Source: Crossaster papposus (taxonomy: Eukaryota; Echinodermata; Asteroidea; Velatida; Solasteridae). Taken from it: a stretch of 64,000 nt of DNA. The stretch's first letter is position 1. Every line of letters starts with the position of its first letter. This document shows, piece after piece, positions 1 through 64,000 of the stretch. The position numbers and the translations under genes were made by a program. The notes beneath the pieces are model-generated. The model had not been told where the DNA came from. It searched no databases and was given only the letters and a program-made list of their open reading frames with translations. The DNA lies in contig JBAIAA010000786.1 in NCBI GenBank assembly GCA_037893245.1, positions 124,001 through 188,000 on the forward strand, in the 5' to 3' direction.

Positions 1-26
1 TTTAGAAACATACATGTTAACAAAAT
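1..26 (-). other. Partial spacer at the left edge
   Basis: The last 26 bp of a unit spacer, with T4 at 22-25 for gene 27. It reads AGAAACATAC where most spacers have AGAAAAATAC. Confidence 0.85.
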
Positions 27-97
27 TGCACCGGCCGGGAATCGAACCCGGGCCTCCCGCGTGGGAGGCGAGAATTCTACCACTGAACCACCGGTGC
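27..97 (-). tRNA. tRNA-Gly(CCC)
   Basis: Single change G34 to C turns loop CTGCCAC into CTCCCAC, anticodon CCC (63-65), reading GGG. U33 and the rest of the cloverleaf are consensus, so this copy looks functional. First complete gene of the window; its right neighbour is a U27/U43 copy. Confidence 0.93.
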
Positions 98-167
98 TTC
101 GCACGATTTCCTAAACACTCATTTCAGTTGAAAATACAATATTTAGAAAAATACATGTTAACAAAAT

Positions 168-238
168 TGCACCGGCCGGGAATCGAACCCGGGCCTACCG
201 CGTGGCAGGCGAAAATTCTACCACTGAACCACCGGTGC
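168..238 (-). tRNA. tRNA-Gly(GCC), U27/U43 family (22 copies)
   Basis: C27 to U and G43 to U occur together and turn the outermost anticodon-stem pair into U-U. Other members start at 732, 1578, 4539, 5674, 6661, 7507, 8776, 11878, 13013, 14000, 14846, 16115, 27253, 47751, 48033, 50148, 50430, 51557, 51839, 56209 and 61143. Those at 48033, 50430, 51839, 56209 and 61143 also have A21 to G. Anticodon and remaining arms are intact. Confidence 0.88.
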
Positions 239-287
239 TTCGCACGATTTCCTAAACACTCATTTCAGTTGAAAATACAATATTTAG

Positions 288-292
288 AAAAA
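288..292 (-). terminator. Backup T5 tract in the spacer
   Basis: The minus strand reads TTTTT about 17-21 nt downstream of the tRNA 3' end, in a context present in most units. It could catch Pol III that reads through the minimal T4, giving a longer trailer. Its use is inferred. Confidence 0.55.
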
Positions 293-303
293 TAAATGTT
301 AAC

Positions 304-307
304 AAAA
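304..307 (-). terminator. Pol III T4 terminator of the reference copy
   Basis: After A73 the minus strand reads A then TTTT then G, so the predicted trailer is about one to five nucleotides. The element sits at S-5 to S-2 of nearly every unit. T4 is the minimal animal Pol III terminator. A T5 tract at 288-292 (S-21 to S-17) offers a backup. Confidence 0.85.
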
Positions 308-319
308 TTGCACCGGCCG

Positions 320-330
320 GGAATCGAACC
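320..330 (-). promoter_or_regulatory. Pol III B box of the reference copy
   Basis: On the minus strand this reads GGTTCGATTCC, the canonical TFIIIC B box (bases 52-62), at S+11 to S+21 of each gene. A common array variant has A at base 57, which the consensus tolerates. Copies with G53 to A (450, 1296), G52 to C (22742) or C61 to U weaken it. Confidence 0.92.
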
Positions 331-361
331 CGGGCCTCCCGCGTGGCAGGCGAGAATTCTA

Positions 362-372
362 CCACTGAACCA
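362..372 (-). promoter_or_regulatory. Pol III A box of the reference copy
   Basis: On the minus strand this reads TGGTTCAGTGG, tRNA bases 8-19, an exact fit to the eukaryotic A-box consensus. The same element lies at S+53 to S+63 in each gene. Copies with U8, U11, A14, U16 or G18 substitutions alter it. Confidence 0.9.
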
Positions 373-379
373 CCGGTGC

Positions 380-449
380 TTCGCACGATTTCCTAAACAC
401 TCATTTCAGTTGAAAATACAATATTTAGAAAAATACATGTTAACAAAAT
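380..449 (-). other. 70-bp spacer and 5' flank of the reference copy
   Basis: AT-rich spacer between consecutive genes. Reading the minus strand towards the gene it contains the terminator region of the neighbour, a GTTAAC palindrome, an AT-rich TATA-like stretch about 35-49 bp upstream (414-428) and a short leader ending GTGCGAA next to base 1. Common spacer variants across the array distinguish subfamilies at CATTTCAG (CATTCCAG, CATGCCAG, CATTTTAG, CATTTCATTTAA), at ACAATAT (GCAATAT, AAAATAT) and at TTCCTAAA (TTCTTAAA, TTCATAAA, TTACTAAA). I see no other gene or element in it. Confidence 0.8.
414..428 (-). promoter_or_regulatory. TATA-like AT-rich stretch upstream of the reference copy
   Basis: On the minus strand this reads CTAAATATTGTATTT, 35-49 bp upstream of base 1, repeated in every unit. 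Upstream AT-rich elements help TFIIIB placement on some animal tRNA genes. It is slightly far for a classical -30 TATA, so a role is uncertain. Confidence 0.35.
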
Positions 450-520
450 TGCACCGGCCGGGAATCGAATCCGGGCCTCCCGCGTGGGAGGCGAGAATTC
501 TACCACTGAACCACCGGTGC
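450..520 (-). tRNA. tRNA-Gly(CCC), B-box variant
   Basis: Anticodon CCC, plus G53 to A, which breaks G53-C61 and changes the B box to GATTCGATTCC. Transcription and T-arm folding are probably reduced. Confidence 0.85.
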
Positions 521-590
521 TTCGCACGATTTCCTAAACACTCATTTCAGTTGAAAATACAATATTTAGAAAAATACATGTTAACAAAAT

Positions 591-661
591 TGCACCGGCC
601 GGGAATCGAACCCGGGCCTCCCGCGTGGGAGGCGAGAATTCTACCACTGAACCACCGGTGC
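591..661 (-). tRNA. tRNA-Gly(CCC)
   Basis: Anticodon CCC with otherwise consensus body. Second of a CCC pair within the 6-unit repeat. Confidence 0.93.
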
Positions 662-1295
662 TTCGCACGATTTCCTAAACACTCATTTCAGTTGAAAATA
701 CAATATTTAGAAAAATACATGTTAACAAAATTGCACCGGCCGGGAATCGAACCCGGGCCTACCGCGTGGCAGGCGAAAATTCTACCACTGAACCACCGGT
801 GCTTCGCACGATTTCCTAAACACTCATTTCAGTTGAAAATACAATATTTAGAAAAATACATGTTAACAAAATTGCACCGGCCGGGAATCGAACCCGGGCC
901 TCCCGCGTGGCAGGCGAGAATTCTACCACTGAACCACCGGTGCTTCGCACGATTTCCTAAACACTCATTCCAGTTGAAAATACAATATTTAGAAAAATAC
1001 ATGTTAACAAAATTGCACCGGCCGGGAATCGAACCCGGGCCTCCCGCGTGGCAGGCGAGAATGCTACCACTGAACCACCGGTGCTTCGCACGATTTCCTA
1101 AACACTCATTTCAGTTGAAAATACAATATTTAGAAAAATACATGTTAACAAAATTTCACCGGCCGGGAATCGAACCCGGGCCTCCCGCGTGGCAGGCGAG
1201 AATTCTACCACTGAACCACCGGTGCTTCGCACGATTTCCTAAACACTCATTCCAGTTGAAAAAAAAATATTTAGAAAAATACATGTTAACAAAAT

Positions 1296-1366
1296 TGCAC
1301 CGGCCGGGAATCGAATCCGGGCCTCCCGCGTGGGAGGCGAGAATTCTACCACTGAACCACCGGTGC
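1296..1366 (-). tRNA. tRNA-Gly(CCC), B-box variant
   Basis: Same CCC plus G53 to A combination as the copy 846 bp to the left, showing block duplication. Confidence 0.85.
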
Positions 1367-1436
1367 TTCGCACGATTTCCTAAACACTCATTTCAGTTGA
1401 AAATACAATATTTAGAAAAATACATGTTAACAAAAT

Positions 1437-1507
1437 TGCACCGGCCGGGAATCGAACCCGGGCCTCCCGCGTGGGAGGCGAGAATTCTACCACTGAACCA
1501 CCGGTGC
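1437..1507 (-). tRNA. tRNA-Gly(CCC)
   Basis: Anticodon CCC, otherwise consensus; the +846 bp counterpart of the copy at 591. Confidence 0.93.
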
Positions 1508-4397
1508 TTCGCACGATTTCCTAAACACTCATTTCAGTTGAAAATACAATATTTAGAAAAATACATGTTAACAAAATTGCACCGGCCGGGAATCGAACCC
1601 GGGCCTACCGCGTGGCAGGCGAAAATTCTACCACTGAACCACCGGTGCTTCGCACGATTTCCTAAACACTCATTTCAGTTGAAAATACAATATTTAGAAA
1701 AATACATGTTAACAAAATTGCACCGGCCGGGAATCGAACCCGGGCCTCCCGCGTGGCAGGCGAGAATTCTACCACTGAACCACCGGTGCTTCGCACGATT
1801 TCCTAAACACTCATTCCAGTTGAAAATACAATATTTAGAAAAATACATGTTAACAAAATTGCACCGGCCGGGAATCGAACCCGGGCCTCCCGCGTGGCAG
1901 GCGAGAATGCTACCACTGAACCACCGGTGCTTCGCACGATTTCCTAAACACTCATTTCAGTTGAAAATACAATATTTAGAAAAATACATGTTAACAAAAT
2001 TTCACCGGCCGGGAATCGAACCCGGGCCTCCCGCGTGGCAGGCGAGAATTCTACCACTGAACCACCGGTGCTTCGCACGATTTCCTAAACACTCATTCCA
2101 GTTGAAAAAAAAATATTTAGAAAAATACATGTTAACAAAATTGCACCGGCCGGGAATCGAACCCGGGCCTCCCGCGTGGCAGGCGAGAATTCTACCACTG
2201 AACCACCGGTGCTTCGCACGATTTCCTAAACACTCATTTCAGTTGAAAATACAATATTTAGAAAAATACATGTTAACAAAATTGCACCGGCCGGGAATCG
2301 AACCCGGGCCTCCCGCGTGGCAGGCGAGAATTATACCACTGAACCACCGGTGCTTCGCACGATTTCCTAAACACTCATTCCAGTTGAAAATACAATATTT
2401 AGAAAAATACATGTTAACAAAATTGCACCGGCCGGGAATCGAACCCGGGCCTCCCGCGTGGCAGGCGAGAATTCTACCACTGAGCCACCGGTGCTTCGCA
2501 CGATTTACTAAACACTCATTTCAGTTGAAAATGCAATATTTAGAAAAATACATGTTAACAAAATTGCACCGGCCGGGAATTGAACCCGGGCCTCCCGCGT
2601 GGCAGGCGAGAATTCTACCACTGAACCACCGGTGCTTCGCACGATTTCTTAAACACTCATTTCAGTTGAAAATACAATATTTAGAAAAATACATGTTAAC
2701 AAAATTGCACCGGCCGGGAATCGAACCCGGGCCTCCCGCGTGGCAGGCGAGAATTCTACCACTGAACCACCGGTGCTTCGCACGATTTCCTAAACACTCA
2801 TTCCAGTTGAAAATACAATATTTAGAAAAATACATGTTAACAAAATTGCACCGGCCGGGAATCGAACCCGGACCTCCCGCGTGGCAGGCGAGAATTCTAC
2901 CACTGAACCACCGGTGCTTCGCACGATTTCCTAAACACTCATTCCAGTTGAAAATACAATATTTAGAAAAATACATGTTAACAAAATTGCACCGGCCGGG
3001 AATTGAACCCGGGCTTCCCGCGTGGCAGGCGAGAATTCTACCACTGAACCACCGGTGCTTCGCACGATTTCTTAAACACTCATTTCAGTTGAAAATACAA
3101 TATTTAGAAAAATACATGTTAACAAAATTGCACCGGCCGGGAATCGAACCCGGGCCTCCCGCGTGGCAGGCGAGAATTCTACCACTGAACCACCGGTGCT
3201 TCGCACGATTTCCTAAACACTCATTCCAGTTGAAAATACAATATTTAGAAAAATACATGTTAACAAAATTGCACCGGCCGGGAATCGAACCCGGACCTCC
3301 CGCGTGGCAGGCGAGAATTCTACCACTGAACCACCGGTGCTTCGCACGATTTCCTAAACACTCATTCCAGTTGAAAATACAATATTTAGAAAAATACATG
3401 TTAACAAAATTGCACCGGCCGGGAATCGAACCCGGGCCTCCCGCGTGGCAGGCGAGAATTCTACCACTGAACCACCGGTGCTTCGCACGATTTCCTAAAC
3501 ACTCATTCCAGATGAAAATACAATATTTAGAAAAATACATGTTAACAAAATTGCACCGGCCGGGAATCGAACCCGGGCCTCCCGCGTGGCAGGCGAGAAT
3601 TCTACCACTGAACCACCGGTGCTTCGCACGATTTCCTAAACACTCATGCCAGTTGAAAATACAATATTTAGAAAAATACATGTTAACAAAATTGCACCGG
3701 CCGGGAATCGAACCCGGGCCTCCCGCGTGGCAGGCGAGAATTCTACCACTGAACCACCGGTGCTTCGCACGATTTCCTAAACACTCATTCCAGTTGAAAA
3801 TACAATATTTAGAAAAATACATGTTAACAAAATTGCACCGGCCGGGAATCGAACCCGGGCCTCCCGCGTGGCAGGCGAGAATTCTACCCCTGAACCACCG
3901 GTGCTTCGCACGATTTCCTAAACACTCATTTCAGTTGAAAATACAATATTTAGAAAAATACATGTTAACAAAATTGCACCGGCCGGGAATCGAACCCGGG
4001 CCTCCCGAGTGGCAGGCGAGAATTCTACCACTGAACCACCGGTGCTTCGCACGATTTCCTAAACACTCATTTCAGTTGAAAATACAATATTTAGAAAAAT
4101 ACATGTTAACAAAATTGCACCGGCCGGGAATCGAACCCGGGCCTCCCGCGTGGCAGGCGAGAATTCTACCACTGAACCACCGGTGCTTCGCACGATTTCC
4201 TAAACACTCATTCCAGTTGAAAATACAATATTTAGAAAAATACCTGTTAACAAAATTGCACCGGCCGGGAATCGAACCCGGGCCTCCCGCGTGGCAGGCG
4301 AGAATTCTACCACTGAACCACCGGTGCTTCGCACGATTTCCTAAACACTCTTGCCAGTTGAAAATACAATATTTAGAAAAATACATGTTAACAAAAT

Positions 4398-4468
4398 TGC
4401 ACCGGCCGGGAATCGAACCCGGGCCTCCCGCGTGGGAGGCGAGAATTCTACCACTGAACCACCGGTGC
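4398..4468 (-). tRNA. tRNA-Gly(CCC)
   Basis: Isolated CCC copy with consensus body, followed on the right by a U27/U43 copy. Its counterpart in the 7339-bp duplication is 11737. Confidence 0.93.
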
Positions 4469-4934
4469 TTCGCACGATTTCCTAAACACTCATTTCAGTT
4501 GAAAATACAATATTTAGAAAAATACATGTTAACAAAATTGCACCGGCCGGGAATCGAACCCGGGCCTACCGCGTGGCAGGCGAAAATTCTACCACTGAAC
4601 CACCGGTGCTTCGCACGATTTCCTAAACACTCATTCCAGTTGAAAATACAATATTTAGAAAAATACATGTTAACAAAATTGTACCGGCCGGGAATCGAAC
4701 CCGGGCCTCCCGCGTGGCAGGCGAGAATTCTACCACTGAACCACCGGTGCTTCGCACGATTTCCTAAACACTCATGCCAGTTGAAAATACAATATTTAGA
4801 AAAATACATGTTAACAAAATTGCACCGGCCGGGAATCGAACCCGGGCCTCCCGCGTGGCAGGCGAGAATTCTACCACTGAACCACCGGTGCTTCGCACGA
4901 TTTCCTAAACACTCATTCCAGTTGAAAATACAAT

Positions 4935-4948
4935 ATTTAGAATTTAGA
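4935..4948. repeat. 7-bp spacer duplication (ATTTAGA x2), copy 1
   Basis: Tandem duplication that shifts the 141-bp phase by 7. It lies upstream of the gene on its left (4821) and separates runs 1 and 2. Confidence 0.92.
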
Positions 4949-5109
4949 AAAATACATGTTAACAAAATTGCACCGGCCGGGAATCGAACCCGGGCCTCCC
5001 GCGTGGCAGGCGAGAATTCTACCACTGAACCACCGGTGCTTCGCACGATTTCCTAAACACTCATTTCAGTTGAAAATACAATATTTAGAAAAATACATGT
5101 TAACAAAAT

Positions 5110-5180
5110 TGCACCGGCCGGGAATCGAACCCGGGCCTCCCGCGTGGGAGGCGAGAATTCTACCACCGAACCACCGGTGC
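5110..5180 (-). tRNA. tRNA-Gly(CCC), A14 to G
   Basis: CCC with A14 to G, which removes the conserved partner of U8 and alters the A box. Stability is probably lower. Confidence 0.85.
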
Positions 5181-5250
5181 TTCGCACGATTTCCTAAACA
5201 CTCATTTCAGTTGAAAATACAATATTTAGAAAAATACATGTTAACAAAAT

Positions 5251-5321
5251 TGCACCGGCCGGGAATCGAACCCGGGCCTCCCGCGTGGGAGGCGAGAATT
5301 ATACCACTGAACCACCGGTGC
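5251..5321 (-). tRNA. tRNA-Gly(CCC), G22 to U
   Basis: CCC with G22 to U, breaking D-stem pair C13-G22. Confidence 0.85.
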
Positions 5322-5391
5322 TTCGCACGATTTCCTAAACACTCATTTCAGTTGAAAATACAATATTTAGAAAAATACATGTTAACAAAAT

Positions 5392-5462
5392 TGCACCGGC
5401 CGGGAATCGAACCCGGGCCTCCCGCGTGGGAGGCGAGAATTCTACCACCGAACCACCGGTGC
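5392..5462 (-). tRNA. tRNA-Gly(CCC), A14 to G
   Basis: Repeat of the 5110 variant 282 bp away, part of a two-unit duplication. Confidence 0.85.
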
Positions 5463-5532
5463 TTCGCACGATTTCCTAAACACTCATTTCAGTTGAAAAT
5501 ACAATATTTAGAAAAATACATGTTAACAAAAT

Positions 5533-5603
5533 TGCACCGGCCGGGAATCGAACCCGGGCCTCCCGCGTGGGAGGCGAGAATTATACCACTGAACCACCGG
5601 TGC
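5533..5603 (-). tRNA. tRNA-Gly(CCC), G22 to U
   Basis: Repeat of the 5251 variant 282 bp away; last of four consecutive CCC genes. Confidence 0.85.
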
Positions 5604-6378
5604 TTCGCACGATTTCCTAAACACTCATTTCAGTTGAAAATACAATATTTAGAAAAATACATGTTAACAAAATTGCACCGGCCGGGAATCGAACCCGGGC
5701 CTACCGCGTGGCAGGCGAAAATTCTACCACTGAACCACCGGTGCTTCGCACGATTTCCTAAACACTCATTTCAGTTGAAAATACAATATTTAGAAAAATA
5801 CATGTTAACAAAATTGCACCGGCCGGGAATCGAACCCGGGCCTCCCGCGTGGCAGGCGAGAATTCTACCACTGAACCACCGGTGCTTCGCACGATTTCCT
5901 AAACACTCATTTCAGTTGAAAATACAATATTTAGAAAAATACATGTTAACAAAATTGCACCGGCCGGGAATCGAACCCGGGCCTCCCGCGTGGCAGGCGA
6001 GAATTCTACCACTGAACCACCGGTGCTTCGCACGATTTCCTAAACACTCATTTCAGTTGAAAATGCAATATTTAGAAAAATACATGTTAACAAAATTGCA
6101 CCGGCCGGGAATTGAACCCGGGCCTCCCGCGTGGCAGGCGAGAATTCTACCACTGAACCACCGGTGCTTCGCACGATTTCTTAAACACTCATTTCAGTTG
6201 AAAATACAATATTTAGAAAAATACATGTTAACAAAATTGCACCGGCCGGGAATCGAACCCGGGCCTCCCGCGTGGCAGGCGAGAATTCTACCACTGAACC
6301 ACCGGTGCTTCGCACGATTTCCTAAACACTCATTCCAGTTGAAAATACAATATTTAGAAAAATACATGTTAACAAAAT

Positions 6379-6449
6379 TGCACCGGCCGGGAATCGAACC
6401 CGGGCCTCCCGCGTGGGAGGCGAGAATTCTACCACCGAACCACCGGTGC
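6379..6449 (-). tRNA. tRNA-Gly(CCC), A14 to G
   Basis: CCC with A14 to G; the same pair order (A14G copy then G22U copy) as at 5110-5321. Confidence 0.85.
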
Positions 6450-6519
6450 TTCGCACGATTTCCTAAACACTCATTTCAGTTGAAAATACAATATTTAGAA
6501 AAATACATGTTAACAAAAT

Positions 6520-6590
6520 TGCACCGGCCGGGAATCGAACCCGGGCCTCCCGCCTGGGAGGCGAGAATTATACCACTGAACCACCGGTGC
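6520..6590 (-). tRNA. tRNA-Gly(CCC), G22 to U and C38 to G
   Basis: CCC with broken C13-G22 and a C38 to G change in the anticodon loop next to A37. Decoding competence is doubtful. Confidence 0.8.
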
Positions 6591-9480
6591 TTCGCACGAT
6601 TTCCTAAACACTCATTTCAGTTGAAAATACAATATTTAGAAAAATACATGTTAACAAAATTGCACCGGCCGGGAATCGAACCCGGGCCTACCGCGTGGCA
6701 GGCGAAAATTCTACCACTGAACCACCGGTGCTTCGCACGATTCCCTAAACACTCATTTCAGTTGAAAATACAATATTTAGAAAAATACATGTTAACAAAA
6801 TTGCACCGGCCGGGAATCGAACCCGGGCCTCCCGCGTGGCAGGCGAGAATTCTACCACTGAACCACCGGTGCTTCGCACGATTTCCTAAACACTCATTTC
6901 AGTTGAAAATACAATATTTAGAAAAAAACATGTTAACAAAATTGCACCGGCCGGGAATCGAACCCGGGCCTCCCGCGTGGCAGGCGAGAATTCTACCACT
7001 GAACCACCGGTGCTTCGCACGATTTCCTAAACACTCATTTCAGTTGAAAATGCAATATTTAGAAAAATACATGTTAACAAAATTGCACCGGCCGGGAATT
7101 GAACCCGGGCCTCCCACGTGGCAGGCGAGAATTCTACCACTGAACCACCGGTGCTTCGCACGATTTCTTAAACACTCGTTTCAGTTGAAAATACAATATT
7201 TAGAAAAATACATGTTAACAAAATTGCACCGGCCGGGAATCGAACCCGGGCCTCCCGCGTGGCAGGCGAGAATTCTACCACTGAACCACCGGTGCTTCGC
7301 ACGATTTCCTAAACACTCATTTCAGTTGAAAATACAATATTTAGAAAAATACATGTTAACAAAATTGCACCGGCCGGGAATCGAACCCGGGCCTCCCGCG
7401 TGGCAGGCGAGAATTATACCACTGAACCACCGGTGCTTCGCACGATTTCCTAAACACTCATTTCAGTTGAAAATACAATATTTAGAAAAATACATGTTAA
7501 CAAAATTGCACCGGCCGGGAATCGAAGCCGGGCCTACCGCGTGGCAGGCGAAAATTCTACCACTGAACCACCGGTGCTTCGCACGATTCCCTAAACACTC
7601 ATTTCAGTTGAAAATACAATATTTAGAAAAATACATGTTAACAAAATTGCACCGGCCGGGAATCGAACCCGGGCCTCCCGCGTGGCAGGCGAGAATTCTA
7701 CCACTGAACCACCGGTGCTTCGCACGATTTCCTAAACACTCATTTCAGTTGAAAATACAATATTTAGAAAAATACATGTTAACAAAATTGCACCGGCCGG
7801 GAATCGAACCCGGGCCTCCCGCGTGGCAGGCGAGAATTCTACCACTGAACCACCGGTGCTTCGCACGATTTCCTAAACACTCATTTCAGTTGAAAATGCA
7901 ATATTTAGAAAAATACATGTTAACAAAATTGCACCGGCCGGGAATTGAACCCGGGCCTCCCGCGTGGCAGGCGAGAATTCTACCACTGAACCACCGGTGC
8001 TTCGCACGATTTCTTAAACACTCATTTCAGTTGAAAATACAATATTTAGAAAAATACATGTTAACAAAATTGCACCGGCCGGGAATCGAACCCGGGCCTC
8101 CCGCGTGGCAGGCGAGAATTCTACCACTGAACCACCGGTGCTTCGCACGATTTCCTAAACACTCATTCCAGTTGAAAATACAATATTTAGAAAAATACAT
8201 GTTAACAAAATTGCACCGGCCGGGAATCGAACCCGGGCCTCCCGCGTGGCAGGCGAGAATTCTACCACTGAACCACCGGTGCTTCGCACGATTTCCTAAA
8301 CACTCCTTCCAGTTGAAAATACAATATTTAGAAAAATACATGTTAACAAAATTGCACCGGCCGGGAATTGAACCCGGGCCTCCCACGTGGCAGGCGAGAA
8401 TTCTACCACTGAACCACCGGTGCTTCGCACGATTTCTTAAACACTCATTTCAGTTGAAAATACAATATTTAGAAAAATACATGTTAACAAAATTGCACCG
8501 GCCGGGAATCGAACCCGGGCCTCCCGCGTGGCAGGCGAGAATTCTACCACTGAACCACCGGTGCTTCGCACGATTTCCTAAACACTCATTTCAGTTGAAA
8601 ATACAATATTTAGAAAAATACATGTTAACAAAATTGCACCGGCCGGGAATCGAACCCGGGCCTCCCGCGTGGCAGGCGAGAATTATACCACTGAACCACC
8701 GGTGCTTCGCACGATTTCCTAAACACTCATTTCAGTTGAAAATACAATATTTAGAAAAATACATGTTAACAAAATTGCACCGGCCGGGAATCGAACCCGG
8801 GCCTACCGCGTGGCAGGCGAAAATTCTACCACTGAACCACCGGTGCTTCGCACGATTCCCTAAACACTCATTTCAGTTGAAAATACAATATTTAGAAAAA
8901 TACATGTTAACAAAATTGCACCGGCCGGGAATCGAACCCGGGCCTCCCGCGTGGCAGGCGAGAATTCTACCACTGAACCACCGGTGCTTCGCACGATTTC
9001 CTAAACACTCATTTCAGTTGAAAATAAAATATTTAGAAAAATACATGTTAACAAAATTGCACCGGCCGGGAATCGAACCCGGGCCTCCCGCGTGGCAGGC
9101 GAGAATTCTACAACTGAACCACCGGTGCTTCGCACGATTTCCTAAACACTCATTTCAGTTGAAAATGCAATATTTAGAAAAATACATGTTAACAAAATTG
9201 CACCGGCCGGGAATTGAACCCGGGCCTCCCGCGTGGCAGGCGAGAATTCTACCACTGAACCACCGGTGCTTTGCACGATTTCTTAAACACTCATTTCAGT
9301 TGAAAATACAATATTTAGAAAAATACATGTTAACAAAATTGCACCGGCCGGGAATCGAACCCGGGCCTCCCGCGTGGCAGGCGAGAATTCTACCACTGAA
9401 CCACCGGTGCTTCGCACGAATTCCTAAACACTCATTCCAGTTGAAAATACAATATTTAGAAAAATACATGTTAACAAAAT

Positions 9481-9551
9481 TGCACCGGCCGGGAATCGAA
9501 CCCGGGCTTCCCGCGTGGCCGGCGAGAATTCTACCACTGAACCACCGGTGC
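9481..9551 (-). pseudogene. tRNA-Gly(GCC) with U33 to G
   Basis: The anticodon loop reads CGGCCAC instead of CTGCCAC. U33, which forms the U-turn of the anticodon loop, is replaced by G. Transcription signals are intact but decoding should be poor. Confidence 0.65.
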
Positions 9552-9762
9552 TTCGCACGATTTCCTAAACACTCATTACAGTTGAAAATACAATATTTAG
9601 AAAAATACATGTTAACAAAATTGCACCGGCCGGGAATTGAAACCGGGCCTCCCGCGTGGCAGGCGAGAATTCTACCACTGAACCACCGGTGCTTCGCACG
9701 ATTTCCTAAACACTCATGCCAGTTGAAAATACAATATTTAGAAAAATACATGTTAACAAAAT

Positions 9763-9833
9763 TGCACCGGCCGGGAATCGAACCCGGGCCTCCCGCGTGG
9801 CAGGCAAGAATTCTACCACTGAACCGCCGGTGC
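9763..9833 (-). tRNA. tRNA-Gly(GCC), U8 to C family (12 copies)
   Basis: U8 to C removes half of the conserved U8-A14 tertiary pair and changes the first A-box base. C29 to U accompanies it, leaving a U-G pair. Other members start at 17102, 26407, 29661, 30655, 32354, 33348, 35047, 36041, 37451, 38445 and 39855; 39855 also has C72 to A. Activity is probably reduced. Confidence 0.85.
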
Positions 9834-10467: not shown

Positions 10468-10538
10468 TGCATCGGCAGGGAATCGAACCCGGGCCTCCCG
10501 CGTGGCAGGCGAGAATTCTACCACTGAACCACCGGTGC
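10468..10538 (-). tRNA. tRNA-Gly(GCC), G69A/G64U family (15 copies)
   Basis: G69 to A mispairs with C4 in the acceptor stem and G64 to U mispairs with C50 in the T stem. Other members start at 17807, 19217, 19640, 20909, 23024, 31360, 34053, 36746, 39150, 40560, 42111, 55645, 60579 and 63680. The anticodon is GCC throughout. Confidence 0.85.
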
Positions 10539-35879: not shown

Positions 35880-35899
35880 AAAATACATGTTAACAAAAT

Positions 35900-53106: not shown

Positions 53107-53177
53107 TGCACCGGCCAAGAATCGAACCCGGGCATCCCGCGTGGCAGGCGAGAATTCTACCACTGAACCACCTGTGC
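53107..53177 (-). pseudogene. Degenerate tRNA-Gly(GCC), partly changed form
   Basis: Shares C5 to A, G45 to U and the base 62-63 changes with 42957 but keeps consensus bases 65-66. It is an intermediate of, or a partly converted form of, the same lineage. Confidence 0.75.
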
Positions 53178-54234: not shown

Positions 54235-54305
54235 AGCACCGGCCGGGAATCGAACCCGGGCCTCCCGCGTGGCAGGCGAGAATTCTACCACTGAACCACC
54301 GGTGC
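54235..54305 (-). tRNA. tRNA-Gly(GCC) with U73
   Basis: U73 with consensus G1-C72. Confidence 0.85.
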
Positions 54306-55080
54306 TTCGCACGATTTCCTAAACACTCATTTTAGTTGAAAATACAATATTTAGAAAAATACATGTTAACAAAATTGCACCGGCCGGGAATCGAACCCGG
54401 GCCTCCCGCGTGGCAGGCGAGAATTCTACCACTGAACCACCGGTGCTTCGCACGATTTCCTAAACACTCATTTTAGTTGAAAATACAATATTTAGAAAAA
54501 TACATGTTAACAAAATTGCGCCGGCCGGAAATCGAACCCGGGCATCCAGCGTGGCAGGCGAGAATTCTACCACTGAACCACCGGTGCTTCGCACGATTTC
54601 CTAAACACTCATTTCAGTTGAAAATACAATATTTAGAAAAATACATGTTAACAAAATTGCACCGGCCGGGAATCGAACCCGGGCCTCCCGCGTGGCAGGC
54701 GAGAATTCTACCACTGAACCACCGGTGCTTCGCACGATTTCCTAAACACTCATTCCAGTTGAAAATACAATATTTAGAAAAATACATGTTAACAAAATTG
54801 CACCGGCCGGGAATCGAACCCGGGCCTCCCGCGTGGCAGGCGAGAATTCTACCACTGAACCACCGGTGCTTCGCACGATTTCCTAAACACTCATTTCATT
54901 TAAAAATACAATATTTAGAAAAATACATGTTAACAAAATTGCACCGGCCGGGAATCGAACCCGGGCCTCCCGCGTGGCAGGCGAGAATTCTACCACTGAA
55001 CCACCGGTGCTTCGCACGATTTCATAAACACTAATTTCAGTTGAAAATACAATATTTAGAAAAATACATGTTAACAAAAT

Positions 55081-55151
55081 AGCACCGGCCGGGAATCGAA
55101 CCCGGGCCTCCCGCGTGGCAGGCGAGAATTCTACCACTGAACCACCGGTGC
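55081..55151 (-). tRNA. tRNA-Gly(GCC) with U73
   Basis: Copy of 54235 at +846. Confidence 0.85.
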
Positions 55152-56349
55152 TTCGCACGATTTCCTAAACACTCATTTTAGTTGAAAATACAATATTTAG
55201 AAAAATACATGTTAACAAAATTGCACCGGCCGGGAATCGAACCCGGGCCTCCCGCGTGGCAGGCGAGAATTCTACCACTGAACCACCGGTGCTTCGCACG
55301 ATTTCCTAAACACTCATTTTAGTTGAAAATACAATATTTAGAAAAATACATGTTAACAAAATTGCGCCGGCCGGAAATCGAACCCGGGCATCCAGCGTGG
55401 CAGGCGAGAATTCTACCACTGAACCACCGGTGCTTCGCACGATTTCCTAAACACTCATTTCAGTTGAAAATACAATATTTAGAAAAATACATGTTAACAA
55501 AATTGCACCGGCCGGGAATCGAACCCGGGCCTCCCGCGTGGCAGGCGAGAATTCTACCACTGAACCACCGGTGCTTCGCACGATTTCCTAAACACTCATT
55601 TCAGTTGAAAATACAATATTTAGAAAAATACATGTTAACAAAATTGCATCGGCAGGGAATCGAACCCGGGCCTCCCGCGTGGCAGGCGAGAATTCTACCA
55701 CTGAACCACCGGTGCTTCGCACGATTTCCTAAACACTCATTTTAGTTGAAAATACAATATTTAGAAAAATACATGTTAACAAAATTGCACCGGACGGGAA
55801 TCGAACCCGGGCCTCCCGCGTGGCAGGCGAGAATTCTACCACTGAACCACCGGTGCTTCGCACGATTTCCTAAACACTCATTCCAGTTGAAAATACAATA
55901 TTTAGGAAAATACATGTTAACAAAATTGCACCGGCCGGGAATCGAACCCGGGCCTCCCGCGTGGCAGGCGAGAATTCTACCACTGAACCACCGGTGCTTC
56001 GCACGATTTCCTAAACACTCATGCCAGTTGAAAATACAATATTTAGAAAAATACATGTTAACAAAATTGCACCGGCCGGGAATCGAACCCGGGCCTCCCG
56101 CGTGGCAGGCGAGAATTCTACCACTGAACCACCGGTGCTTCGCACGATTTCCTAAACACTCATTCCAGTTGAAAATACAATATTTAGAAAAATACATGTT
56201 AACAAAATTGCACCGGCCGGGAATCGAACCCGGGCCTACCGCGTGGCAGGCGAAAATTCCACCACTGAACCACCGGTGCTTCGCACGATTTCATAAACAC
56301 TCATTTCAGTTGAAAATACAATATTTAGAAAAATACATGTTAACAAAAT

Positions 56350-56419
56350 TGCACCGGCCGGGAATCGAACCCGGGCCTCCCGCGTGGCAGGCGAGAATTC
56401 CTTACTGAACAACCGGTGC
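56350..56419 (-). pseudogene. tRNA-Gly(GCC) with D-loop deletion, copy 3
   Basis: Same lesion; preceded by the U27/U43 plus A21 to G copy 56209. Confidence 0.75.
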
Positions 56420-56912
56420 TTCGCACGATTTCCTAAAGACTCATTTCAGTTGAAAATACAATATTTAGTAAAATACATGTTAACAAAATTGCACCGGCCG
56501 GGAATCGAACCCGGGCCTCCCGCGTGGCAGGCGAGAATTCTACCACTGAACCACCGGTGCTTCGCACGATTTACTAAACACTCATTTCAGTTGAAAATGC
56601 AATATTTAGAAAAATACATGTTAACAAAATTGCACCGGCCGGGAATTGAACCCGGGCCTCCCGCGTGGCAGGCGAGAATTCTACCACTGAACCACCGGTG
56701 CTTCGCACGATTTCCTAAACACTCATGCCAGTTGAAAATACAATATTTAGAAAAATACATGTTAACAAAATTGCACCGGCCGGGAATCGAACCCGGGCCT
56801 CCCGCGTGGCAGGCGAGAATTCTACCACTGAACCACCGGTGCTTCGCACCATTTCCTAAACACTCATTTCAGTTGAAAATACAATATTTAGAAAAATACA
56901 TGTTAACAAAAT

Positions 56913-56983
56913 TGCACCGGCCGGGAATCGAACCCGGGCCTCCCGCGTGGGAGGCGAGAATTCTACCACTGAACCACCGGTGC
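56913..56983 (-). tRNA. tRNA-Gly(CCC)
   Basis: Consensus body with CCC; block copy of 52543 (offset 4370). Confidence 0.93.
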
Positions 56984-57053
56984 TTCGCACGATTTCCTAA
57001 ACACTCATTTCAGTTGAAAATACAATATTTAGAAAAATACATGTTAACAAAAT

Positions 57054-57124
57054 TGCACCGGCCGGGAATCGAACCCGGGCCTCCCGCGTGGGAGGCGAGA
57101 ATTATACCACTGAACCACCGGTGC
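57054..57124 (-). tRNA. tRNA-Gly(CCC), G22 to U
   Basis: Block copy of 52684 (offset 4370), including the spacer tag. Confidence 0.85.
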
Positions 57125-57758
57125 TTCGCTCGATTTCCTAAACACTCATTTTAGTTGAAAATACAATATTTAGAAAAATACATGTTAACAAAATTGCACC
57201 GGTCGGGAATCGAACCCGGGCATCCCGCGTGGCAGGCGAGAATTCTACCACTGAACCACCGGTGCTTCGCACGATTTCCTAAACACTCATTTCAGTTGAA
57301 AATACAATATTTAGAAAAATACATGTTAACAAAATTGCACCGGCCGGGAATCGAACCCGGGCCTCCCGCGTGGCAGGCGAGAATTCTACCACTGAACCAC
57401 CGGTGCTTCGCACGATTCCCTAAACACTCATTTTAGTTGAAAATACAATATTTAGAAAAATACATGTTAACAAAATTGCACCGGCCGGGAATCGAACCCG
57501 GGCATCCCGCGTGGCAGGCGAGAATTATACCACTGAACCACCGGTGCTTCGCACGATTTCTTAAACACTCATTTCAGTTGAAAATACAATATTTAGAAAA
57601 ATACATGTTAACAAAATTGCACCGGCCAGGAATTGAACCCGGGCCTCCCGCGTGGCAGGCGAGAATTCTACCACTGAACCACCGGTGCTTCGCACGATTT
57701 CCTAAACACTCATTCCAGTTGAAAATACAATATTTAGAAAAATACATGTTAACAAAAT

Positions 57759-57829
57759 TGCACCGGCCGGGAATCGAACCCGGGCCTCCCTCGTGGGAGG
57801 CGAGAATTATACCACTGAACCACCGGTGC
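57759..57829 (-). tRNA. tRNA-Gly(CCC), G22 to U and C40 to A
   Basis: CCC with a broken D-stem pair and C40 to A, which breaks G30-C40 in the anticodon stem. Probably non-functional. Confidence 0.78.
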
Positions 57830-58745
57830 TTCGCACGATTTCCTAAACACTCATTTCAGTTGAAAATACAATATTTAGAAAAATACATGTTAACAAAATT
57901 GCACCGGCCGGGAATCGAACCCGGGCCTCCCGCGTGGCAGGCGAGAATTCTACCACTGAACCACCGGTGCTTCGCACGATTTCCTAAACACTCATTCCAG
58001 TTGAAAATACAATATTTAGAAAAATACATGTTAACAAAATTGCACCGGCCGGGAATCGAACCCGGGCCTCCCGCGTGGCAGGCGAGCATTCTACCACTGA
58101 ACCACCGGTGCTTCGCACGATTTCCTAAACACTCATTCCAGTTGAAAATACAATATTTAGAAAAATACATGTTAACAAAATTGCACCGGCCGGGAATCGA
58201 ACCCGGGCCTCCCGCGTGGCAGGCGAGAATTCTACCACTGAACCACCAGTGCTTCCCACGATTTCCTAAACACTCATTCCAGTTGAAAATACAATATTTA
58301 GAAAAATACATGTTAACAAAATTGCACCGGCCGGGAATCGAACCCGGGCCTCCCGCGTGGCAGGCGAGAATTCTACCACTGAACCACCGGTGCTTCGCAC
58401 GATTTCCTAAACACTCATTCCAGTTGAATATACAATATTTAGAAAAATACATGTTAACAAAATTGCACCGGCCGGGAATCGAACCCGGGCCTCCCGCGTG
58501 GCAGGCGAGAATTCTACCACTGAACCACCGGTGCTTCGCACGATTTCCTAAACACTCATTTCATTTAAAAATACAATATTTAGAAAAATACATGTTAACA
58601 AAATTGCACCGGCCGGGAATCGAACCCGGGCCTCCCGCGTGGCAGGCGAGAATTCTACCACTGAACCACCGGTGCTTCGCACGATTTCATAAACACTAAT
58701 TTCAGTTGAAAATACAATATTTAGAAAAATACATGTTAACAAAAT

Positions 58746-58816
58746 AGCACCGGCCGGGAATCGAACCCGGGCCTCCCGCGTGGCAGGCGAGAATTCTACC
58801 ACTGAACCACCGGTGC
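58746..58816 (-). tRNA. tRNA-Gly(GCC) with U73
   Basis: U73 copy, first member of the 987-bp repeat pair. Confidence 0.85.
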
Positions 58817-59168
58817 TTCGCACGATTTCCTAAACACTCATTTTAGTTGAAAATACAATATTTAGAAAAATACATGTTAACAAAATTGCACCGGCCGGGA
58901 ATCGAACCCGGGCCTCCCGCGTGGCAGGCGAGAATTCTACCACTGAACCACCGGTGCTTCGCACGATTTCCTAAACATTCATTTTAGTTGAAAATACAAT
59001 ATTTAGAAAAATACATGTTAACAAAATTGCACCGGCCGGAAATCGAACCCGGGCATCCCGCGTGGCAGGCGAGAATTCTACCACTGAACCACCGGTGCTT
59101 CGCACGATTTCCTAAACACTCATTTCAGTTGAAAATACAATATTTAGAAAAATACATGTTAACAAAAT

Positions 59169-59239
59169 AGCACCGGCCGGGAATCGAACCCGGGCCTCCC
59201 GCGTGGCAGGCGAGAATTCTACCACTGAACCACCGGTGC
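59169..59239 (-). tRNA. tRNA-Gly(GCC) with U73
   Basis: U73 copy whose left spacer has the ordinary CACTCATTTC, unlike 58746. Confidence 0.85.
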
Positions 59240-59732
59240 TTCGCACGATTTCCTAAACACTCATTTTAGTTGAAAATACAATATTTAGAAAAATACATGT
59301 TAACAAAATTGCACCGGCCGGGAATCGAACCCAGGCCTCCCGCGTGGCAGGCGAGAATTCTACCACTGAACCACCGATGCTTCGCACCATTTCCTAAACA
59401 CTCATTTCAGTTGAAAATACAATATTTAGAAAAATACATGTTAACAAAATTGCACCGGCCGGGAATCGAACCCGGGCCTCCCGCGTGGCAGGCGAGAATT
59501 CTACCACTGAACCACCGGTGCTTCGCACGATTTCCTAAACACTCATTTCATTTAAAAATACAATATTTAGAAAAATACATGTTAACAAAATTGCACCGGC
59601 CGGGAATCGAACCCGGGCCTCCCGCGTGGCAGGCGAGAATTCTACCACTGAACCACCGGTGCTTCGCACGATTTCATAAACACTAATTTCAGTTGAAAAT
59701 ACAATATTTAGAAAAATACATGTTAACAAAAT

Positions 59733-59803
59733 AGCACCGGCCGGGAATCGAACCCGGGCCTCCCGCGTGGCAGGCGAGAATTCTACCACTGAACCACCGG
59801 TGC
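59733..59803 (-). tRNA. tRNA-Gly(GCC) with U73
   Basis: Copy of 58746 at +987. Confidence 0.85.
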
Positions 59804-60155
59804 TTCGCACGATTTCCTAAACACTCATTTTAGTTGAAAATACAATATTTAGAAAAATACATGTTAACAAAATTGCACCGGCCGGGAATCGAACCCGGGC
59901 CTCCCGCGTGGCAGGCGAGAATTCTACCACTGAACCACCGGTGCTTCGCACGATTTCCTAAACATTCATTTTAGTTGAAAATACAATATTTAGAAAAATA
60001 CATGTTAACAAAATTGCACCGGCCGGAAATCGAACCCGGGCATCCCGCGTGGCAGGCGAGAATTCTACCACTGAACCACCGGTGCTTCGCACGATTTCCT
60101 AAACACTCATTTCAGTTGAAAATACAATATTTAGAAAAATACATGTTAACAAAAT

Positions 60156-60226
60156 AGCACCGGCCGGGAATCGAACCCGGGCCTCCCGCGTGGCAGGCGA
60201 GAATTCTACCACTGAACCACCGGTGC
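60156..60226 (-). tRNA. tRNA-Gly(GCC) with U73
   Basis: Copy of 59169 at +987. Confidence 0.85.
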
Positions 60227-61283
60227 TTCGCACGATTTCCTAAACACTCATTTTAGTTGAAAATACAATATTTAGAAAAATACATGTTAACAAAATTGCC
60301 CCGGCCGGGAATCGAACCCGGGCCTCCCGCGTGGCAGGCGAGAATTCTACCACTGAACCACCGGTGCTTCGCACGATTTCCTAAACACTCATTTTAGTTG
60401 AAAATACAATATTTAGAAAAATACATGTTAACAAAATTGCGCCGGCCGGAAATCGAACCCGGGCATCCAGCGTGGCAGGCGAGAATTCTACCACTGAACC
60501 ACCGGTGCTTCGCACGATTTCCTAAACACTCATTTCAGTTGAAAATACAATATTTAGAAAAATACATGTTAACAAAATTGCATCGGCAGGGAATCGAACC
60601 CGGGCCTCCCGCGTGGCAGGCGAGAATTCTACCACTGAACCACCGGTGCTTCGCACGATTTCCTAAACACTCATTTTAGTTGAAAATACAATATTTAGAA
60701 AAATACATGTTAACAAAATTGCACCGGACGGGAATCGAACCCGGGCCTCCCGCGTGGCAGGCGAGAATTCTACCACTGAACCACCGGTGCTTCGCACGAT
60801 TTCCTAAACACTCATTCCAGTTGAAAATACAATATTTAGGAAAATACATGTTAACAAAATTGCACCGGCCGGGAATCGAACCCGGGCCTCCCGCGTGGCA
60901 GGCGAGAATTCTACCACTGAACCACCGGTGCTTCGCACGATTTCCTAAACACTCATGCCAGTTGAAAATACAATATTTAGAAAAATACATGTTAACAAAA
61001 TTGCACCGGCCGGGAATCGAACCCGGGCCTCCCGCGTGGCAGGCGAGAATTCTACCACTGAACCACCGGTGCTTCGCACGATTTCCTAAACACTCATTCC
61101 AGTTGAAAATACAATATTTAGAAAAATACATGTTAACAAAATTGCACCGGCCGGGAATCGAACCCGGGCCTACCGCGTGGCAGGCGAAAATTCCACCACT
61201 GAACCACCGGTGCTTCGCACGATTTCATAAACACTCATTTCAGTTGAAAATACAATATTTAGAAAAATACATGTTAACAAAAT

Positions 61284-61353
61284 TGCACCGGCCGGGAATC
61301 GAACCCGGGCCTCCCGCGTGGCAGGCGAGAATTCCTTACTGAACAACCGGTGC
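61284..61353 (-). pseudogene. tRNA-Gly(GCC) with D-loop deletion, copy 4
   Basis: Same lesion at +4934 relative to copy 3. Confidence 0.75.
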
Positions 61354-61564
61354 TTCGCACGATTTCCTAAAGACTCATTTCAGTTGAAAATACAATATTT
61401 AGTAAAATACATGTTAACAAAATTGCACCGGCCGGGAATCGAACCCGGGCCTCCCGCGTGGCAGGCGAGAATTCTACCACTGAACCACCGGTGCTTCGCA
61501 CGATTTCCTAAACACTCATTTCAGTTGAAAATACAATATTTAGAAAAATACATGTTAACAAAAT

Positions 61565-61635
61565 TGCACCGGCCGGGAATCGAACCCGGGCCTCCCGCGT
61601 GGGAGGCGAGAATTATACCACTGAACCACCGGTGC
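61565..61635 (-). tRNA. tRNA-Gly(CCC), G22 to U
   Basis: Block copy of 57054 at +4511, with the TCGCTCGATT spacer tag; last CCC gene in the window. Confidence 0.85.
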
Positions 61636-63115
61636 TTCGCTCGATTTCCTAAACACTCATTTTAGTTGAAAATACAATATTTAGAAAAATACATGTTAAC
61701 AAAATTGCACCGGTCGGGAATCGAACCCGGGCATCCCGCGTGGCAGGCGAGAATTCTACCACTGAACCACCGGTGCTTCGCACGATTTCCTAAACACTCA
61801 TTTCAGTTGAAAATACAATATTTAGAAAAATACATGTTAACAAAATTACACCGGCCGGGAATCGAACCCGGGCCTCCCGCGTGGCAGGCGAGAATTCTAC
61901 CACTGAACCACCGGTGCTTCGCACGATTCCCTAAACACTCATTTTAGTTGAAAATACAATATTTAGAAAAATACATGTTAACAAAATTGCACCGGCCGGG
62001 AATCGAACCCGGGCATCCCGCGTGGCAGGCGAGAATTCTACCACTGAACCACCTGTGCTTCGCACGATTTCCTAAAGACTCATTTCAGTTGAAAATACAA
62101 TATTTAGTAAAATACATGTTAACAAAATTGCACCGGCCGGTAATCGAACCCGGGCCTCCCGCGTGGCAGGCGAGAATTCTACCACTGAACCACCGGTGCT
62201 TCGCACGATTTCCTAAACACTCATTTCAGTTGAAAATACAATATTTAGAAAAATACATGTTAACAAAATTGCACCGGCCGGGAATCGAACCCGGGCCTCC
62301 CGCGTGGCAGGCGAGAATTATACCACTGAACCACCGGTGCTTCGCACGATTTCTTAAACACTCATTTCAGTTGAAAATACAATATTTAGAAAAATACATG
62401 TTAACAAAATTGCACCGGCCGGGAATCGAACCCGGGCCTCCCGCGTGGCAGGCGAGCATTCTACCACTGAACCACCGGTGCTTCGCACGATTTCCTAAAC
62501 ACTCATTCCAGTTGAAAATACAATATTTAGAAAAATACATGTTAACAAAATTGCACCGGCCGGGAATCGAACCCGGGCCTCCCGCGTGGCAGGCGAGAAT
62601 TCTACCACTGAACCACCAGTGCTTCCCACGATTTCCTAAACACTCATTCCAGTTGAAAATACAATATTTAGAAAAATACATGTTAACAAAATTGCACCGG
62701 CCGGGAATCGAACCCGGGACTCCCGCGTGGCAGGCGAGAATTCTACCACTGAACCACCGGTGCTTCGCACGATTTCCTAAACACTCATTCCAGTTGAATA
62801 TACAATATTTAGAAAAATACATGTTAACAAAATTGCACCGGCCGGGAATCGAACCCGGGCCTCCCGCGTGGCAGGCGAGAATTCTACCACTGAACCACCG
62901 GTGCTTCGCACGATTTCCTAAACACTCATTTCATTTAAAAATACAATATTTAGAAAAATACATGTTAACAAAATTGCACCGGCCGGGAATCGAACCCGGG
63001 CCTCCCGCGTGGCAGGCGAGAATTCTACCACTGAACCACCGGTGCTTCGCACGATTTCATAAACACTAATTTCAGTTGAAAATACAATATTTAGAAAAAT
63101 ACATGTTAACAAAAT

Positions 63116-63186
63116 AGCACCGGCCGGGAATCGAACCCGGGCCTCCCGCGTGGCAGGCGAGAATTCTACCACTGAACCACCGGTGC
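63116..63186 (-). tRNA. tRNA-Gly(GCC) with U73
   Basis: Last U73 copy in the window, with the CACTAATTTC neighbour spacer. Confidence 0.85.
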
Positions 63187-63961
63187 TTCGCACGATTTCC
63201 TAAACACTCATTTTAGTTGAAAATACAATATTTAGAAAAATACATGTTAACAAAATTGCACCGGCCGGGAATCGAACCCGGGCCTCCCGCGTGGCAGGCG
63301 AGAATTCTACCACTGAACCACCGGTGCTTCGCACGATTTCCTAAACATTCATTTTAGTTGAAAATACAATATTTAGAAAAATACATGTTAACAAAATTGC
63401 ACCGGCCGGAAATCGAACCCGGGCATCCCGCGTGGCAGGCGAGAATTCTACCACTGAACCACCGGTGCTTCGCACGATTTCCTAAACACTCATTTCAGTT
63501 GAAAATACAATATTTAGAAAAATACATGTTAACAAAATTGCACCGGCCGGGAATCGAACCCGGGCCTCCCGCGTGGCAGGCGAGAATTCTACCACTGAAC
63601 CACCGGTGCTTCGCACGATTTCCTAAACACTCATTTCAGTTGAAAATACAATATTTAGAAAAATACATGTTAACAAAATTGCATCGGCAGGGAATCGAAC
63701 CCGGGCCTCCCGCGTGGCAGGCGAGAATTCTACCACTGAACCACCGGTGCTTCGCACGATTTCCTAAACACTCATTTTAGTTGAAAATACAATATTTAGA
63801 AAAATACATGTTAACAAAATTGCACCGGACGGGAATCGAACCCGGGCCTCCCGCGTGGCAGGCGAGAATTCTACCACTGAACCACCGGTGCTTCGCACGA
63901 TTTCCTAAACACTCATTCCAGTTGAAAATACAATATTTAGGAAAATACATGTTAACAAAAT

Positions 63962-64000
63962 TGCACCGGCCGGGAATCGAACCCGGGCCTCCCGCGTGGC
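63962..64000 (-). tRNA. tRNA-Gly(GCC), 5' part cut by window end
   Basis: Bases 73 down to 34 are present (39 of 71 nt). The anticodon complement GGC is the last thing visible, so this is a GCC copy. The D arm and acceptor 5' strand lie outside the window. Confidence 0.95.

What the first reader, a model, noticed from the sequence alone, without database searches (positions are those of the whole stretch)
1..64000. Uninterrupted array of more than 450 same-strand tRNA-Gly genes
Seen: 453 complete 71-nt genes at a 141-bp period with no other sequence in 64 kb. The unit count closes exactly once the fifteen indels are summed. Known: animal tRNA genes can be clustered, but arrays of hundreds of one isotype are exceptional. 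Inference: either a dosage array for glycine-rich protein synthesis (silk, collagen, cuticle or mucin-like products) or a tRNA-derived satellite, possibly both.
Basis: partly seen in the sequence, partly recalled or inferred. Interest (0 to 1): 0.9.

Follow-up and report, generated by a model that had tools for sequence, protein, structure and literature searches.

The report
Tandem array of 453 glycine-tRNA genes
This 64,000-base stretch of DNA from an unknown organism is one small glycine-tRNA gene repeated head to tail about 453 times, and the copies mutate and spread like satellite DNA, which makes it a striking but not unprecedented kind of gene array.

Summary
ARAGORN and Rfam each find 453 tRNA genes; ARAGORN puts all on the minus strand. 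Segmentation gives 452 full 141-bp units plus two cut ends and exactly 15 indels, with nothing else in the window.

Refinements: 418 genes have anticodon GCC, 34 CCC (still Gly), one GCG; 448 are 71 nt, five 70 nt.

The copies evolve like satellite DNA. Gene and spacer vary at similar fractions of sites. Variants that break stem pairs are about as common as the spacer's spectrum predicts and reach as many copies as spacer variants. 144 of 452 genes have a broken pair; 272 of 452 pass every check made. Growth is in blocks: 52 units (7.3 kb) are duplicated head to tail with two differences.

Best reading: a tRNA-Gly gene has become the monomer of a satellite-like array, homogenised by block-wise exchange, many copies still able to make tRNA. 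The glycine-rich-product idea has no support here; a maternal tRNA reservoir is a better dosage idea, untested.

Source organism unknown. Arrays with a lone Gly-GCC gene per unit are already tabulated for Entamoeba, so the kind is not new.

The parts
98..63891 (-). 452 complete 141-bp units (71-bp tRNA-Gly gene plus 70-bp AT-rich spacer), head to tail
   Evidence: unit starts
27..97 (-). 453rd tRNA gene (anticodon CCC), in the unit cut by the low end of the window
   Evidence: (reverse-complement 63904-63974)
63892..64000 (-). partial unit cut by the high end of the window (3' part of a gene and its spacer)
   Evidence: 32 of 141 positions missing
11103..18441 (.). 52-unit block, first copy of a head-to-tail duplication
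3764..11102 (.). 52-unit block, second copy; 2 substitutions relative to the first
30437..36816 (.). 19-unit periodic zone: a 26-unit run repeats identically at a lag of 19 units (30437-34123 and 33130-36816, overlapping)
45848..50500 (.). 17-unit periodic zone: a 16-unit run repeats identically at a lag of 17 units (45848-48103 and 48245-50500)
24293..24363 (-). single gene copy with anticodon GCG (called Arg by ARAGORN)
4398..61635 (-). span holding 29 of the 33 Gly-CCC genes in full units, scattered among GCC genes; the other four are at 450-520, 591-661, 1296-1366 and 1437-1507, and a 34th is the end gene at 27-97

Best explanation
A Pol III tRNA-Gly gene, together with 70 bp of flank, has become the monomer of a satellite-like array. 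The array grows and is homogenised by exchange of multi-unit blocks (unequal crossing-over or an equivalent); each copy mutates about as freely as the spacer beside it. Shown: the array itself in this assembly, the recurrent blocks, the absence of detectable per-copy constraint, and that 272 of 452 copies keep all stem pairs, the recalled tRNA core positions, a Gly anticodon, the A discriminator and a TTTT tract just downstream. Inferred: that these copies are transcribed by Pol III through internal A and B boxes and feed the glycine-tRNA pool, probably in a regulated way, for example as a germline or early-embryo reservoir that is silenced elsewhere. Selection, if any, acts on the array as a whole and not on single copies.
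For: 453 genes by two methods. Copies equal to the consensus score 66.9 bits against a 29-bit cut-off. Variable sites in gene and spacer: G/C sites 36 of 48 against 15 of 18 (p 0.74), A/T sites 12 of 23 against 17 of 52 (p 0.13). Distinct stem alleles: 10 keep and 34 break the pair, against 9.9 and 40.0 expected from the spacer's own mutation spectrum. Copy number of pair-breaking alleles does not differ from that of spacer alleles (p 0.89; all gene alleles p 0.88). A 52-unit duplication with 2 differences. Longest identical run of units at any lag 26, against 2-4 in 20 shuffles of unit order. 291 of 452 units lie in recurrent blocks of 5 or more. 31 of 61 alleles with 3-30 copies have a span along the array in the lowest 5% of random draws. 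TTTT downstream in 452 of 452.
Against: The tests for constraint have limited power, and 453-fold redundancy would weaken per-copy selection even if total dosage mattered. Gene alleles (69 against 75.1) and pair-breaking alleles (34 against 40.0) are slightly fewer than the spacer spectrum predicts, the direction that weak constraint would give; no formal test was made of these. The better fit of the whole-unit spectrum (68.0, 33.6) is partly circular because it includes the gene. The invariance of TTTT and of gene positions 53, 54 and 56 hints at constraint, though many A/T sites are invariant anywhere in the unit. Nothing here shows transcription. No second species and no flanking sequence could be compared.
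Confidence: 0.6

Rival explanations
1. Dosage array kept by selection for glycine-tRNA supply, either for a glycine-rich product or for stocking the oocyte and early embryo. It overlaps with the best explanation and differs in making supply the reason the array exists.
For: Consensus is a sound tRNA and 272 of 452 copies pass all checks; both GCC and CCC Gly anticodons are present. In zebrafish maternally deposited tRNAs come from highly repetitive regions and late ones from single or few isolated copies (PMC11417395, passages); [quoted passage not shown]
Against: No clear purging of broken copies; in Entamoeba no link between tRNA gene number and codon usage is reported (PMC2652664); nothing is known of the source organism's products.
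Confidence: 0.25
2. Transcriptionally inert satellite or structural block (heterochromatin, insulator, centromere or subtelomere) that merely began from a tRNA gene.
For: Neutral-like divergence of single copies, recurrent blocks, a monomer of 141 bp (that many satellites have monomers near this size is recalled). A human tRNA tandem repeat carries both H3K4me3 and H3K9me3 and is proposed as a boundary element (PMC4041453, title and passages).
Against: The consensus stays a complete tRNA with TTTT after the gene in 452 of 452 copies. No excess of CpG transitions, as heavy germline methylation would leave: transition alleles at 11 of 20 CpG and 21 of 46 other C/G sites, 67 and 183 copies; but the source species may not methylate CpG.
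Confidence: 0.22
3. Assembly inflation: a real but shorter array lengthened by misassembly.
For: The 52-unit block is duplicated with only 2 differences in 7.3 kb, which could also be two haplotypes joined or an assembly loop; no reads or depth are available.
Against: 135 distinct unit haplotypes, 64 of them seen once, among 452 units; simple collapse and re-expansion would not invent these.
Confidence: 0.06
4. Protein-coding repeat: the plus strand has a stop-free frame through the consensus unit (141 = 47 codons), so the array could be a giant repeat-protein gene read antisense to the tRNAs.
For: Zero stops in the consensus unit in one plus-strand frame; longest stop-free stretch 1,875 codons.
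Against: Alleles fall as expected without constraint: 81 nonsynonymous, 28 synonymous, 6 stop observed against 79.1, 27.8 and 8.1 expected; stop alleles sit in 88 copies. The 15 indels (+7, +4, -1) all shift the frame.
Confidence: 0.01

Closest known systems
Entamoeba tRNA gene arrays, in particular the array tabulated as [Gly-GCC] (PMC2652664)
   Same: Tandem units of 1 to 5 tRNA genes, one type tabulated with a lone Gly-GCC gene in the species of the table; most units uniform within an isolate; an estimated 4,500 tRNA genes in E. histolytica; function unclear (passages).
   Different: E. histolytica has 25 distinct array units that hold almost all its tRNA genes, with short tandem repeats between genes in E. 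histolytica and E. dispar; Gly-CCC is marked '#', which I read as dispersed; that survey saw no clear evidence of nonfunctional copies. Here 144 of 452 genes have a broken pair, CCC genes lie inside the array, and the spacer is a plain 70 bp. Unit size and copies per array were not seen for the Entamoeba Gly array.
[quoted passage not shown] PMC2888827)
   Same: Very high copy tRNA genes in repetitive DNA, some of them deposited maternally (passages).
   Different: Adjacent zebrafish tRNA genes are mostly of different isotypes (PMC2888827); here only Gly-type genes.
[quoted passage not shown]
   Same: Tandem tRNA repeats in an animal genome, activated at zygotic genome activation (passages).
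   Different: The passages seen do not give unit size or gene content; a larger multi-isotype unit is recalled, not tested.
Human 1q23.3 tRNA VNTR (PMC4041453)
   Same: Tandem repeat containing tRNA-Gly genes, copy number varies.
   Different: 7.3-kb unit with five tRNA genes (Leu, Glu, Asp, two Gly) on both strands, 9-43 units (start of abstract, passages).
Plant tRNA tandem clusters, e.g. 27 tRNA-Pro in Arabidopsis and 28 tRNA-Ile in maize (PMC12652284)
   Same: Homogeneous tandem runs of one isotype.
   Different: Clusters in that survey of 50 plant species hold two to 110 genes (passages); here at least 453.

Membership tests
Nuclear-type tRNA-Gly gene (RF00005) | Scores above the family cut-off | tested here: met
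   453 matches at or above gathering; best 68.8 bits
Nuclear-type tRNA-Gly gene (RF00005) | Glycine anticodon (NCC) and A discriminator | tested here: met
   438 of 452 copies; the 14 exceptions are 1 GCG and 13 with T or C at the last gene position
Functional Pol III gene | T-run terminator close downstream | tested here: met
   TTTT within the first nine spacer bases in 452 of 452
Functional Pol III gene | Internal A and B boxes | not tested
   Read by eye from the consensus against recalled motifs; no scan was run
Functional Pol III gene | Transcribed into mature, charged tRNA | not testable with these tools
   no RNA data
Satellite DNA | Long uninterrupted head-to-tail array with homogenised monomers and higher-order blocks | tested here: met
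Satellite DNA | Monomers evolve without gene-like constraint | tested here: met
   no difference found; limited power, slight deficit of gene alleles against the spacer spectrum
Satellite DNA | Heterochromatic or centromeric/telomeric location | not testable with these tools
   no flanks, no genome held
Entamoeba-type tRNA array | Tandem units of 1-5 tRNA genes | tested here: met
   one gene per unit
Entamoeba-type tRNA array | Short tandem repeats between genes (E. histolytica and E. dispar only) | tested here: not met
   plain 70-bp spacer; only the 141-bp period reported, in 1-12000
Entamoeba-type tRNA array | Source organism is an Entamoeba | not testable with these tools
   no genome held; no eukaryote collection on hand
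tRNA-derived SINE | tRNA-related head plus body and LINE-like or A-rich tail, dispersed insertions | tested here: not met
   units abut head to tail with a T-run after the gene and no tail seen in the consensus; dispersed copies could not be looked for
Protein-coding repeat gene | Constraint on the reading frame | tested here: not met
   allele classes as expected without constraint; 15 of 15 indels shift the frame

The most novel reading that the evidence does not exclude
An essential housekeeping gene has become a true satellite monomer. Selection sees only the array, single genes drift freely, and block-wise turnover both keeps the pool usable and acts as a nursery for new tRNAs: the GCC-to-CCC anticodon change now sits in 34 of 453 genes (33 of them in full units, in 13 unit haplotypes), still glycine but reading another codon.
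Probability: 0.35. Interest if true: 0.72.

Novelty: new variant of a known kind. Interest (0 to 1): 0.57.

Why it matters
If real and expressed, the locus lets one test how an essential gene evolves when copy number makes each copy dispensable: how many of some 450 copies are active, whether broken copies pollute the tRNA pool, and how anticodon variants spread. Array-private variants would make groups of copies traceable in tRNA-seq. It also warns annotators that tRNA counts, and copy-number-based estimates of codon adaptation, can be dominated by one satellite-like array.

Tried and rejected
Identifying the source: no whole genome is held for the window. A 40-base spacer pattern gave 0 matches in viral contigs and genome contigs, and the whole gene with anticodon GCC or CCC gave 0 in both; these collections hold viruses, bacteria and archaea, so little was to be expected. 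A two-unit query against phages found only 44-bp matches in two Stenotrophomonas phage records, one annotated tRNA-Asp there. Gene-end sequences searched as text found 0 papers. That the gene body looks animal is recalled, not tested.

Protein-coding reading of the open plus-strand frame: rejected. Excess CpG decay: not seen. Strand-biased mutation (sense-strand G-to-T alleles 13 at 26 G sites against C-to-A 8 at 22 C sites in the gene): too few events to claim. Distance decay of identity: only weak, 97.6% at lags 1-5 to 97.3% at lags over 300; adjacent units are slightly more alike than in shuffled order (3.33 against 3.50 differences, 0 of 500 shuffles as low). Within-unit exchange: 55 of 857 pairs of alleles with five or more copies show all four combinations, which may be exchange or recurrent mutation.

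Precedents were looked for only in ten searches of an open-access library that lacks most subscription papers. Several listings were capped (for example 15 of 931 papers shown, 40 of 211, 15 of 158), so a closer precedent may exist unseen. Of the papers used, passages were read, none in full; PMC3706591 (transposons aimed at multicopy small RNA genes, passages) was looked at and not needed.
Full report
OBSERVATION. The window is a single tandem array. ARAGORN finds 453 tRNA genes, all on the minus strand (tally), and Rfam RF00005 gives 453 matches at or above the gathering score (150 listed, all on the minus strand). Wrap-around alignment to the 141-bp unit (71-bp gene, 70-bp spacer) gives 452 complete units and a cut unit at each end; the only indels are nine insertions of 7 bp, one of 4 bp and five 1-bp deletions. 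Base composition is flat across the window (GC 0.458-0.472 in 4-kb steps). The array leaves the window at both ends, so 453 is a lower bound in this assembly.

ANATOMY. In the direction of transcription each consensus unit is: tRNA gene; ATTTTG, giving a T4 tract one base after the gene; an AT-rich spacer with a second T-run; then the next gene. The T4 columns are unchanged in 452 of 452 units. Anticodons are GCC in 418, CCC in 34 and GCG in one of 453; the GCG gene is at 24293-24363. Of the 34 CCC genes, 33 lie in full units, in 13 unit haplotypes; 14 of these 33 are 7 plus 7 in the two copies of the 52-unit block (from the indices), so the count partly reflects that one duplication. Five genes lack one base.

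CONDITION OF THE COPIES. Of 452 full units there are 135 distinct unit sequences and 73 distinct genes; 208 genes equal the consensus. All 21 stem pairs are kept in 308; 113 have one broken pair, 27 two and 4 three. Checks of pairs, core positions (list recalled; 51 and 59 left to the pair check), NCC anticodon with A discriminator, and TTTT together are passed by 272 of 452. So roughly 60% look sound and 40% carry a change that might matter; none was tested for function. Broken-pair copies occur along the whole array (22-38% in the nine bins of 50 units; a last bin of two units has one of two).

CONSTRAINT. If single copies were under selection, genes should vary less than spacers. That is not seen: G/C sites vary at 36 of 48 in the gene and 15 of 18 in the spacer; A/T sites at 12 of 23 and 17 of 52. 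Mean difference from consensus is 1.31% per gene base and 1.43% per spacer base; about half of the spacer differences come from two variable positions, 114 and 115, and without them the spacer would vary less than the G+C-richer gene. Distinct stem alleles keep the pair in 10 cases and break it in 34; the spacer's own spectrum predicts 9.9 and 40.0, and 75.1 gene alleles in all against 69 observed. The whole-unit spectrum predicts 10.5, 33.6 and 68.0, but it includes the gene and is partly circular. Broken-pair alleles reach as many copies as spacer alleles (medians 3.0 and 2.5, p 0.89). The slight deficits against the spacer spectrum point towards weak constraint; no formal test was made of them and the power is limited.

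HOW IT GROWS. Identical runs of units recur at specific lags: 52, 19, 17, 10 and others. The largest case is a head-to-tail duplication of 52 units, 3764-11102 and 11103-18441, with two substitutions. The longest identical run is 26 units; 20 shuffles of unit order gave 2-4. Recurrent blocks of five or more units cover 291 of 452, and 31 of 61 alleles with 3-30 copies are clustered along the array, where about 3 would be expected at the 5% level. Mean identity hardly falls with distance, though neighbours are slightly more alike than in shuffled order. Few allele pairs (55 of 857) show all four combinations, so units mostly move as whole haplotypes. This fits unequal exchange between sister or homologous arrays; other amplification routes are not excluded.

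THE OPEN PLUS-STRAND FRAME. Because 141 is a multiple of three and one plus-strand frame of the consensus lacks stops, the window contains stop-free stretches of up to 1,875 codons antisense to the tRNAs. Allele classes match expectation without constraint and all 15 indels shift the frame. It is incidental.

FUNCTION. The gene consensus is intact and the copies are numerous enough to supply much glycine tRNA if transcribed. I favour a satellite-like array of competent genes, perhaps active mainly in germline and early embryo, by analogy with zebrafish, where maternally deposited tRNAs come from highly repetitive regions (PMC11417395, passages), and with Xenopus oocyte-specific tandem tRNA genes (PMC11500080, a comment, passages). 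This last step is inference only. The silk/collagen/cuticle idea has no support in the window and none in the one search made for it. The readings overlap (a satellite can also supply tRNA), so their odds need not add to one.

KNOWN KINDS. Entamoeba has long tRNA arrays, among them one tabulated as a lone Gly-GCC gene (PMC2652664, passages); those authors report no clear evidence of nonfunctional copies and no link to codon usage. A 2010 survey called tRNA tandem repeats known only from Entamoeba at that date and found adjacent zebrafish genes mostly of different isotypes (PMC2888827, passages). In 50 plant species clusters held two to 110 genes (PMC12652284, passages). The human 1q23.3 repeat has a 7.3-kb unit (PMC4041453, start of abstract and passages). 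The window differs in its minimal unit, its single isotype with two Gly anticodons, its size, and its partly decaying copies. Hence 'new variant of a known kind'; 'new member' would be defensible too. The organism is unknown; animal origin is recalled from the gene's look and is not tested, and an Entamoeba-like source is not formally excluded.

CAVEATS. No reads, no genome, no flanks, no RNA. The near-perfect 7.3-kb duplication is where an assembler could err; removing one copy would still leave 401 genes.

Noticed in passing
window 1-64000, plus strand: One frame of the 141-bp consensus unit (47 codons) has no stop, giving stop-free stretches up to 1,875 codons antisense to the tRNA genes; tests show no coding constraint. 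Automated gene callers may report a spurious giant protein here.
   Followed up: yes
33 full units between 450 and 61635, plus the end gene at 27-97: Anticodon changed from GCC to CCC in 34 genes, the most frequent single allele within the gene, in 13 unit haplotypes among 33 full units; 18 of these 33 keep all stem pairs, against 290 of the 419 other full units.
   Followed up: partly
24293-24363: One copy has anticodon GCG; ARAGORN calls it tRNA-Arg, though the body is the Gly tRNA.
   Followed up: no
nine units, genes at 4969-5039 to 38304-38374: A 7-bp insertion in the spacer, which duplicates TTCTAAA, recurs at lags of 7, 12, 17 and 52 units and so tracks block duplications.
   Followed up: partly
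gene positions 26 and 42: In 22 copies C26T and G42T occur together and turn a C-G pair into a U-U mismatch, a double change that spread without restoring the pair; in one further copy the two positions read T and A, which does pair.
   Followed up: no
genes at 62411, 58041, 53530, 45636 and 43380: Five copies have G at gene position 25; two of them are the best Rfam matches of all, above the consensus copies.
   Followed up: no
window, gene columns: Sense-strand G-to-T changes outnumber C-to-A in copies (119 against 23), but by distinct alleles only 13 against 8, so transcription-linked mutation cannot be claimed.
   Followed up: partly
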